This document shows positions 54,978 to 57,079 of a DNA stretch of 64,000 nt, one piece after another (positions within the stretch are counted from its first letter, which is position 1; every line of letters starts with the position of its first letter). The stretch is from NCBI GenBank assembly GCA_028687475.1, contig JAQUAB010000001.1, positions 372,001 through 436,000 of the forward strand, given 5' to 3'. A program made the position numbers and the translations under genes. Below the pieces are notes generated by a model. The model was not told the DNA's origin. It saw nothing but the letters and a program-made list of their open reading frames with translations, and did no database searches. The DNA comes from Candidatus Gracilibacteria bacterium (GTDB lineage: Bacteria > Patescibacteriota > Gracilibacteria > BD1-5 > UBA2023).

Positions 54978-55010
54978 AAAAAATTCCTCGTAAATACGAG
55001 GAATTTTTCT
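54978..55010. terminator. bidirectional terminator between the 90-aa gene and sodB
   Basis: Long near-perfect stem AAAAATTCCTCGTA / TACGAGGAATTTTT; T runs on both strands. Confidence 0.85.
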
Positions 55011-55612
55011 TATGCATTGAATCGTTCTTCTACTTTCGCCCAATTCACCACATGCCAGAAATTCTCGAGATATTTCGCACGAGCATTGCGATAGTCGATA
55101 TAGTATGCATGTTCCCAGATATCGCAGGTCAGAAGTGGTGTGTCCCCTGTCGTGAGTGGAGTTGCTGCATTCGATGTCGAGACAATATCGAGTGTTCCAT
55201 CAGATTTCTTCACGAGCCAAGTCCACCCAGAACCGAAATTCGCTAGCGCTGCCTTATTGAACTCAGCAACGAATCCCATACCATCCCCCCATTTCAGAGA
55301 TATAGCATCATAGAGAGGACTCTCGCCTGGTTTTGGAGACTCTTTTGGCATATTCTCAACTGACGTAAGTGTTTCAAAGTAGAATGTATGATTCCAGATT
55401 TGTGCAGCATTATTGAAGATTCCTCCTGCTGGCGCTTTTCGGATGATTTCTTCGAGTGAGAGATTCTCATACTCCGTTCCAGGAATGAGCTTATTCAGGT
55501 TATCGACGTAGGTCTGGTGATGTTTTCCATGATGGAACTGAAGTGTCTCCTCACTGATATATGGCGCAAGTGCATTCATCGCATATGGGAGAGTTGGGAG
55601 TGTGTGTGTCAT
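55010..55612 (-). CDS. sodB: superoxide dismutase (Fe/Mn family)
   Basis: Converts superoxide to oxygen and H2O2. 200 residues. Metal ligands lie in [15 protein letters not shown] (His), NHTFYFETL (His), and [12 protein letters not shown] (Asp and His). [13 protein letters not shown], with Gln before IWNHT, is the iron-type pattern. No TGA codons. A lone gene; no Fur-like site is obvious upstream. Confidence 0.94.
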
Positions 55613-55717: not shown

Positions 55718-55745
55718 TTGACAAGTATTGGTAAAAATATATATT
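55718..55745 (+). promoter_or_regulatory. promoter of the G+C-rich transcript
   Basis: TTGACA (55718-55723), 16-bp spacer, TATATT (55740-55745). The A+T-rich promoter is native-looking and immediately precedes the G+C-rich segment. Confidence 0.6.
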
Positions 55746-55752
55746 CATCAAG

Positions 55753-56176
55753 TTGATGAAACGCGGTGCGAGATAGTCTTCTTGCTGCCTAGTCTGGATT
55801 GTATGGGAACAATCATAGATACTCCAATCGGAGCGAGATTCAACAGAGGAGAAACCCATGACCATGAAAGACCAAAAAGTCCCGACTTCCGCCGGAAAAT
55901 CCGGTGTTCAAGCGATGAAATACGTAGAGCGGGGCGGGGCGACTCATCATCGCGAGGATCGCAAGTCTGCAGAACAGCGTGGCCGGCGTGCCCCTGCTGA
56001 CGCACAGAAACGGTGGGCAACCACTGCCCACTTTACAACCGCCTGAGAGGAGGTGACCTGGTTTTCCAGGATCTCTACCTGTACCAAAAAGTGCAGGAAG
56101 GTAAGCACATTGCGAGAAGTCGCTGATGGGCTTACCCCACGAATAAAAGCCCCGCATTACGCGTGGGCTTTTTTCT
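55753..56176 (+). ncRNA. candidate structured RNA of about 420 nt
   Basis: The 633-bp stretch 55613-56245 has no recognisable conserved gene. From promoter to terminator it is strikingly G+C-rich for this window (62% over 55921-55980 and 65% over 55981-56040 by count). Perfect stems include GTGGGCA / TGCCCAC around 56013-56031, CCTGG / CCAGG around 56058-56071, and GGTAAGC / GCTTACC (56100-56136), followed by a terminator stem AAAGCCC / GGGCTTT and T6 (56146-56176). G+C-rich islands in A+T-rich genomes often mark structured RNA. I looked for RNase P, tmRNA and SRP core sequences and found none convincing. A small coding frame is the alternative (55858-56046). Confidence 0.45.
55858..56046 (+). 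CDS. possible small basic protein inside the G+C-rich island
   Basis: ATG 55858 has a canonical Shine-Dalgarno sequence AGAGGAG 6 nt upstream, rare here. With the standard code it encodes 62 residues (MTMKDQKVPTSAGKSGVQAM then an Arg/Lys/His-rich part) ending at TGA 56044-56046. With UGA = Gly the frame runs on to TAA 56209-56211, through the terminator hairpin, which is unlikely for a host gene. Either it came from a standard-code donor or the frame is chance within an RNA gene. Confidence 0.25.
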   Translation: MTMKDQKVPTSAGKSGVQAMKYVERGGATHHREDRKSAEQRGRRAPADAQKRWATTAHFTTA

Positions 56177-56245: not shown

Positions 56246-57079
56246 ATGATTCTCGACTGACGCCTCGTTGCCTCCACTATTCTCGAAAATATCAAGAACG
56301 AGATTACTTTCTCTGAAAATGGACAGAAACCCATGCTCGCTGTTGTGCTTGTGGGTGAAAATCCTGCGAGTCTTTCCTATGTTCGGATGAAGGAGAAGCG
56401 CGCGCGCGAAGTGGGAATGGGCTTTTGACTCTATCAATTTCCCGTGACGATCGATCAGGCAACACTCGAAGAAGAAGTGCGCAGTCTTTCTCAGAATGAG
56501 AAGATTCATGGCATCATCGTCCAAGCACCGCTTCCTTCTCATATCGACCGCTATGCTGTCACGGAATGCATCGATCCTGCCAAGGATGTGGACGGATTCA
56601 CAAAAACGCAGATTGGAAACATGTTCCTCGGGCATGATGGACTCTGGAGCTGTACTCCGAAAGGAATTATGACCCTTCTCTCCTACTACAAGATCGATGT
56701 ACAAGGCAAAAACGTAGTAGTTATCGGTCGATCGAATATTGTGGGAAAGCCTATGGCGCTCATGCTTATCAATGCATGAGCAACGGTCACGAGCTGTAAT
56801 AGTAGTACAAAGAATCTCGCGGAAATCACAAGAAAAGCAGATATCATCATCTCTGCTGTCGGTCACCCTGGACTCATCACCCGAGATATGGTCACTCCAA
56901 AAAGTATCATCATTGATGTTGGTTCGACGTTCGTCGATGGACATGGAGTGGGCGATGTAGATTTCGAATCACTTCGCGACTCTGTGAGTGCTATCACGCC
57001 AGTTCCTGGAGGTGTCGGCCCTATGACTGTTGCAACACTTATCGAGAATACATGGAAGGCGTATTCTCTACAAAAATAA
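56246..57079 (+). CDS. folD: bifunctional methylenetetrahydrofolate dehydrogenase/cyclohydrolase FolD
   Basis: Interconverts 5,10-methylene- and 10-formyl-tetrahydrofolate with NADP. 277 residues. Catalytic YVRMK (Tyr45, Lys49), VQAPLPSH, KDVDGF, the NADP loop GRSNIVGKPMA and the signature PVPGGVGPMT are all present. TGA encodes Gly in MILDGR, GMGFGLYQF and INAGATVT. The start ATG 56246 is conserved. Confidence 0.96.

What the first reader, a model, noticed from the sequence alone, without database searches (positions are those of the whole stretch)
55753..56176. G+C-rich transcription unit with a native promoter: unknown structured RNA or foreign gene
About 62-65% G+C over 120 bp by count in an A+T-rich window, several perfect stems, a terminator with T6, and a canonical Shine-Dalgarno before a frame that ends properly only with the standard code. 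No RNase P, tmRNA or SRP core was found. Either answer is interesting: a new abundant RNA, or a small gene acquired from a standard-code bacterium.
Basis: partly seen in the sequence, partly recalled or inferred. Interest (0 to 1): 0.68.

Follow-up and report, generated by a model that had tools for sequence, protein, structure and literature searches.

The report
Standard-code mini-gene in a recoded bacterium

Summary
Window 55753-56176 is the most G+C-rich stretch in 436 kb of the genome examined, with a near-consensus promoter, a Shine-Dalgarno (SD) before a 62-codon frame ending in TGA, a structured 3' UTR and a T6 terminator. It is not RNase P or tmRNA (both lie elsewhere in the genome) and nothing in Rfam. 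The 62-residue frame is an orphan. It is most likely an mRNA unit rather than a new non-coding RNA: the same sodA-folD gap in relatives holds other short promoter-leader-SD-ORF-terminator units, and one ORF pair there shows clear purifying selection on the protein (dN/dS about 0.18). The genome is a UGA=Gly Gracilibacteria relative with RF1 but no RF2. Its genes show no SD usage (10/265 against 11/265 in a control position), and its 16S tail has lost the CCUCC anti-SD core. Read natively, the frame runs through the terminator without a stop. At least two similar TGA-ended units lie elsewhere in the 41% of the genome read, and several in a related genus. The "foreign standard-code gene" reading is therefore favoured and widened into a small class of moron-like units. 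Their source and function are unknown.

The parts
55718..55745 (+). Promoter TTGACA-16 nt-TATATT; the TTTGACAA element lies at the corresponding place in the sodA-folD gap of G002, G005, G013, G015, G021 and G023 (one G023 copy reads ATTGACAA)
55753..55844 (+). 5' UTR predicted to fold as a closed multi-branched element (TTGATGAA pairing with TTCAACA); no match to the leader motif R1 found in relatives
   Evidence: (z -1.8)
55845..55852 (+). Shine-Dalgarno AGAGGAGA, AGGAG 6 nt before the ATG; native genes show no SD enrichment
55858..56046 (+). ORF F4: 62 codons plus TGA under the standard code, 117 codons under code 25; basic (13 K/R, 6 D/E), orphan, 59% G+C, codon adaptation among the lowest 2.5% of native segments
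56047..56145 (+). 3' UTR with three hairpins (CCTGG/CCAGG; CCTGTAC/GTGCAGG; GGTAAGC/GCTTACC)
   Evidence: z -7.5 for 56047-56176
56048..56056 (+). AGGAGGTGA, a perfect match to a canonical anti-SD, with no ATG nearby
56145..56174 (+). Intrinsic terminator with T6; it lies inside the frame if UGA is read as Gly
55010..55612 (-). Flanking gene sodA (superoxide dismutase), conserved flank of the slot in relatives
56246..57079 (+). Flanking gene folD (3 in-frame TGA=Gly), conserved flank of the slot in relatives

Best explanation
The unit is a monocistronic protein-coding mRNA: strong promoter, structured leader, canonical SD, a 62-aa basic orphan protein, UGA stop, structured 3' UTR, terminator. 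It is written in the standard translation dialect (SD start, UGA stop) inside a genome that has abandoned both. It is one of a small set of such moron-like units that occupy intergenic slots in this family of Gracilibacteria, and the sodA-folD slot holds different ORFs in different species. Shown: anatomy, slot synteny, selection on related ORFs, absence of native SD usage and of RF2. Inferred: the ORF is laterally supplied cargo, most likely from mobile DNA or bacteria with the standard code. In a standard cell the SD would recruit ribosomes and UGA would release the protein. In its present host, initiation would rest on weak pairing to the altered 16S tail, and UGA read-through would run off the mRNA end and call for tmRNA rescue.
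For: Native genes of at least 200 aa have an SD-like 5-mer in 10/265 cases against 11/265 at a control position. The 16S tail is GGACTATCTCTTTATC instead of GGATCACCTCC. Only RF1 was found; the single TIGR00020 hit is prfA, 469 bits to the RF1 model. The code-25 stop lies beyond the T-tract in four units checked: the window unit, G000:370416, G013 C1 and G013 C9. The scan found two further such units, G000:284075 and G013:170679. The sodA-folD gap holds SD-led units with other ORFs in G002, G005, G013, G015, G021 and G023. ORF F1 (G002/G023) has NG86 dN 0.34 against dS 1.88, substitutions by codon position 28/21/49, and TGA in one species where the other has TAG. Fifteen such ORFs hold 94 GGN glycines and no TGA, although native genes use TGA for 19-23% of glycines; the six ending in TAA or TAG hold 27 with none, p about 0.003 by my arithmetic. 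The unit is the G+C maximum of 436 kb.
Against: No homologue or donor was found anywhere searched, so lateral origin is inferred from composition and dialect. The leader and UTRs are shared among different ORFs within the related genus, and F1 and F5 persist between species, which suggests long residence rather than recent arrival. AGGAGA can still form 6 pairs (one G-U) with the altered native tail UCUCUU, so native SD-led translation is possible. The window ORF has no homologue, so selection could not be tested on it directly. A pseudo-stop control did not single out TGA strongly (TGA 4 of 11 frames in G000, another codon 5; 4 of 9 in G013, the top codon).
Confidence: 0.5

Rival explanations
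1. Native, specially regulated gene class. These short genes belong to the organism and use SD pairing (to the drifted anti-SD) plus structured leaders as a translational switch; the TGA ends are tolerated because products are released by tmRNA or another rescue path, or read through.
For: Conserved promoter position and slot in three genera. A conserved riboswitch-like leader R1 occurs in four units of one genus, with a weaker, similarly built one at G021:C11. AGGAGA can pair with UCUCUU (16S tail). F1 and F5 persist between species.
Against: Avoidance of TGA glycines and TGA placed just before terminators are not expected of native genes; in the TGA-ended G000 units the native frame has no stop before the terminator; no SD usage in ordinary genes; the R1 leader is absent from the window unit.
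Confidence: 0.27
2. Structured non-coding or dual-function RNA in which the frame is incidental.
For: Whole unit z -5.3, 3' UTR z -7.5; conserved RNA features in relatives' leaders and ends.
Against: ORF region z -0.4; codon-position pattern of F1 in the homologous slot shows translation; good SD spacing; no Rfam match; no sequence relative in 59 genomes beyond terminator fragments.
Confidence: 0.13
3. Gene written for expression in another cell: the unit is passed to, or acts in, a standard-code partner or prey bacterium.
For: Promoter, SD, stop and terminator are all legible to a standard bacterium and the stop is not legible to the owner; several such units in one genome; Gracilibacteria are considered host-dependent (PMC11452946 title and abstract, PMC6851277).
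Against: No delivery route or signal was found or searched for; some sister units (TAA/TAG-ended) are legible in the native cell too.
Confidence: 0.07

Closest known systems
Phage morons (single-gene accessory units with their own promoter and terminator)
   Same: Compact promoter-ORF-terminator unit, composition unlike the surroundings, orphan short ORF, inserted between genes
   Different: No prophage seen around it; no match in phage, plasmid or viral collections; same slot re-used by different ORFs in relatives
Code-11-compatible phages of Gracilibacteria (PMC10746230)
   Same: Avoid in-frame TGA and remain legible with UGA as stop although the predicted host reads UGA as Gly
   Different: Those are whole phages with backup stop codons close behind TGA; here the units are chromosomal, single and, in the window, lack a backup stop before the terminator
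Type I toxin mRNAs (hok-like, SD masked by 3' fold-back)
   Same: Short ORF, heavily structured UTRs, predicted SD pairing with the 3' region in several units
   Different: In the window the pairing is no more than the terminator arm gives by chance (97/100 shuffles); protein is hydrophilic; no antisense RNA shown

Membership tests
RNase P RNA / tmRNA | Covariance-model match | tested here: not met
   No match in the window; the real genes are at C3:108552-108950 and C3:35270-35691
Any Rfam family | Match at gathering score | tested here: not met
   Only two tRNAs in the window; relaxed search gives only sub-threshold hits
Standard-code (non-native) gene | Ends at UGA before its terminator while the host reads UGA as Gly and lacks RF2 | tested here: met
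Standard-code (non-native) gene | SD start in an SD-less genome | tested here: met
   caveat: partial pairing to the native tail is possible
Standard-code (non-native) gene | Homologue in a standard-code organism or mobile element | tested here: not met
Phage moron | Own promoter and terminator, atypical composition | tested here: met
Phage moron | Located in a phage or prophage genome | tested here: not met
   Flanked by sodA and folD; no viral or phage match
Type I toxin mRNA | 3' fold-back masking the SD beyond chance | tested here: not met
   window unit, 97/100 shuffles with the terminator kept reach the observed pairing
Type I toxin mRNA | Antisense RNA antitoxin | not tested
   needs RNA-seq
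Leader family R1 of the related genus | Covariance-model match in the 5' UTR | tested here: not met
   no match in the window unit

The most novel reading that the evidence does not exclude
A recoded, host-dependent bacterium keeps a set of short genes in the standard genetic dialect (SD start, UGA stop, own promoter and terminator) because they are meant to be expressed by the ribosomes of the standard-code cell it lives on.
Probability: 0.07. Interest if true: 0.95.

Novelty: new variant of a known kind. Interest (0 to 1): 0.55.

Why it matters
If the class is real, recoded genomes contain single genes that keep the old dialect. That gives a direct handle on how genes cross a genetic-code barrier, on how a cell without RF2 and with a drifted anti-SD deals with UGA-ended SD-led messages (tmRNA rescue, silence, or use elsewhere), and on gene exchange between Gracilibacteria and their partners or phages. 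In practice, annotation with code 25 alone would merge or miss such ORFs.

Tried and rejected
RNase P and tmRNA: both genes found elsewhere. SRP RNA: only the Rfam scan of the window was done. Rfam relaxed: only weak sub-threshold matches. Weak protein hits to Ntox11, HopBA1 and conj_TIGR03755 (E 0.05-0.1, far below cut-offs) and the G001/G190/G156 hits (E 0.004-0.009) were not accepted; the G001 one lies inside a ribosomal-protein gene and the other two were not examined further. hok-like SD fold-back: at first attractive because predicted in 6 of 7 units, but for the window it is reproduced by shuffled 3' UTRs that keep the terminator, 97/100, so not claimed; in relatives it is only moderately supported. 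My first thought that the native ribosome cannot use this SD at all was withdrawn: UCUCUU can pair with AGGAGA (tail). Leader motif R1 as a shared riboswitch: real in the related genus, absent from the window unit; matches in Fluviicola and Clostridia records look like chance matches inside other sequence. Pseudo-stop control: too few frames to single out TGA. AlphaFold of the 62-aa protein: no confident fold (pLDDT 61, pTM 0.12).

Full report
What is there. The stretch 55753-56176 lies between sodA (55010-55612, minus) and folD (56246-57079, plus) in a genome that reads UGA as glycine: folD and other native genes carry in-frame TGA, and TGA makes up 19% of glycine codons in long ORFs of the 436 kb examined. 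It has a promoter TTGACA-16-TATATT, a T6 terminator, AGGAG 6 nt before an ATG, a 62-codon frame ending TGA, and a 3' UTR of three hairpins. It is the G+C maximum of the window and of 436 kb of this genome. The fold of the whole is better than shuffles, but that comes from the 3' UTR and terminator; the ORF itself is at chance.

Is it a known RNA? No. Rfam finds only two tRNAs in the window and nothing credible at relaxed threshold. The genome's RNase P and tmRNA genes are elsewhere. DNA comparison with 59 relatives finds only terminator fragments and chance-level matches.

Is it a known protein? No. Pfam, NCBIfam, PHROGs, phage, plasmid, viral and genome collections and 353 genomes of the class give no credible relative. 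A single-sequence structure prediction is uninformative.

The surroundings decide. Because FolD and SodA of relatives could be placed, the homologous gap could be read in other genomes. It holds other short units in the same arrangement, TTTGACAA promoter, leader, SD, short ORF, terminator: G021 (100 aa), G002 (88 aa), G023 (two in tandem, 88 and 58 aa), G013 (54 aa), G005 and G015 (69 aa). In G019 the gap holds a native code-25 gene instead. The ORFs fall into families with no detectable relation to each other. F1, shared by G002 and G023, is 57% identical with dN 0.34, dS 1.88 and an excess of third-position changes, so it is a translated, selected protein. In G002 it ends in TGA where G023 ends in TAG. 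This makes a protein-coding reading of the window unit the most likely, although its own ORF has no homologue to test.

The translation signals do not fit the genome. Native genes show no SD usage: 10/265 against 11/265 at a control position. The single 16S gene found ends GGACTATCTCTTTATC instead of GGATCACCTCC, and the 13 relatives read share the loss of the CACCUCC core. The only class-I release factor found is RF1. With UGA read as Gly the frame runs through the terminator, so the mRNA would have no stop codon. I do not claim the native ribosome cannot use the SD: AGGAGA can pair with UCUCUU.

It is not alone. In the 41% of the genome read there are similarly built TGA-ended units at C1:370416 (69 aa, TGA a few bases before the terminator) and C1:284075-284518 (147 aa with 31 GGN glycines and no TGA), and a weaker case at 347157. 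G013 has several. In 400 kb of a genome of another family, G043, no SD-led frame ran through a terminator in this way. Over 15 such ORFs there are 94 GGN glycines and no TGA. Part of this is selection, since ORFs were cut at TGA, but the six that end in TAA or TAG still have 27 and none, p about 0.003 (my arithmetic). A pseudo-stop control was too small to be decisive.

Mechanism. Transcription from the strong promoter gives an mRNA of about 424 nt; the SD recruits a ribosome; a 62-aa basic protein is made and released at UGA; the terminator ends the unit. The anatomy is shown; the working of each step is inferred. In the owner, UGA read-through would carry ribosomes to the mRNA end and into tmRNA rescue (inferred). 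That the ORF is cargo from standard-code mobile DNA or bacteria is my best-supported inference; code-11-compatible phages of Gracilibacteria have been described (PMC10746230). Rivals are a native SD-gated gene class, a structured RNA, and, least likely but most striking, genes meant for a partner cell.

Comparison. It works like a phage moron (a comparison from general knowledge), but it is not in a phage and matches none. It resembles type I toxin mRNAs in shape, but the fold-back pairing in the window is not beyond chance. UGA=Gly and the absence of prfB in BD1-5 genomes are published (PMC6851277, PMC8629427); I found no paper in the library describing standard-dialect single genes in their chromosomes, which is a limited search.

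Noticed in passing
G000:C1:370320-370670 (L141 10320-10670): Second unit of the same build 1.4 kb before the window: TTGAAA-17-TATAAT, AAGGAGATC-ATG, 69-aa hydrophobic ORF, TGA right before a terminator.
   Followed up: partly
G000:C1:284075-284518 minus (in L137) and C1:347157-347285 (in L140): Further TGA-ended, SD-led, promoter- and terminator-bearing short ORFs (147 aa glycine-rich, all GGN; 42 aa).
   Followed up: partly
L071 2229-2284, L078 2243-2298 and 2747-2801, L042 977-1042, G021:C11:14649-14700 (weak): Riboswitch-like leader motif: closing stem around GCAAGTT-[hairpin]-TNNCCCAAGTAA followed by an SD hairpin, upstream of different short ORFs; only in genus g3 among the class genomes searched; no Rfam match in the loci scanned.
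   Followed up: partly
L097 (16S, G000:C4:121019-122492) and L098-L111: 16S 3' ends across the family read GGACTATCTC(C/T)-: the CCUCC anti-SD core is altered, in line with the lack of SD usage measured in G000.
   Followed up: partly
window 56048-56056: AGGAGGTGA, a 9-nt canonical SD with no start codon close behind it, right after the ORF's TGA.
   Followed up: no
L078 2210-3130: Two tandem SD-led units with related leaders but unrelated ORFs between sodA and folD.
   Followed up: partly
L088 8763-9050 (G013:C9): SD-led 95-aa membrane-protein-like ORF ending in TGA before a terminator, near the tmRNA gene; terminator similar to the window's.
   Followed up: partly
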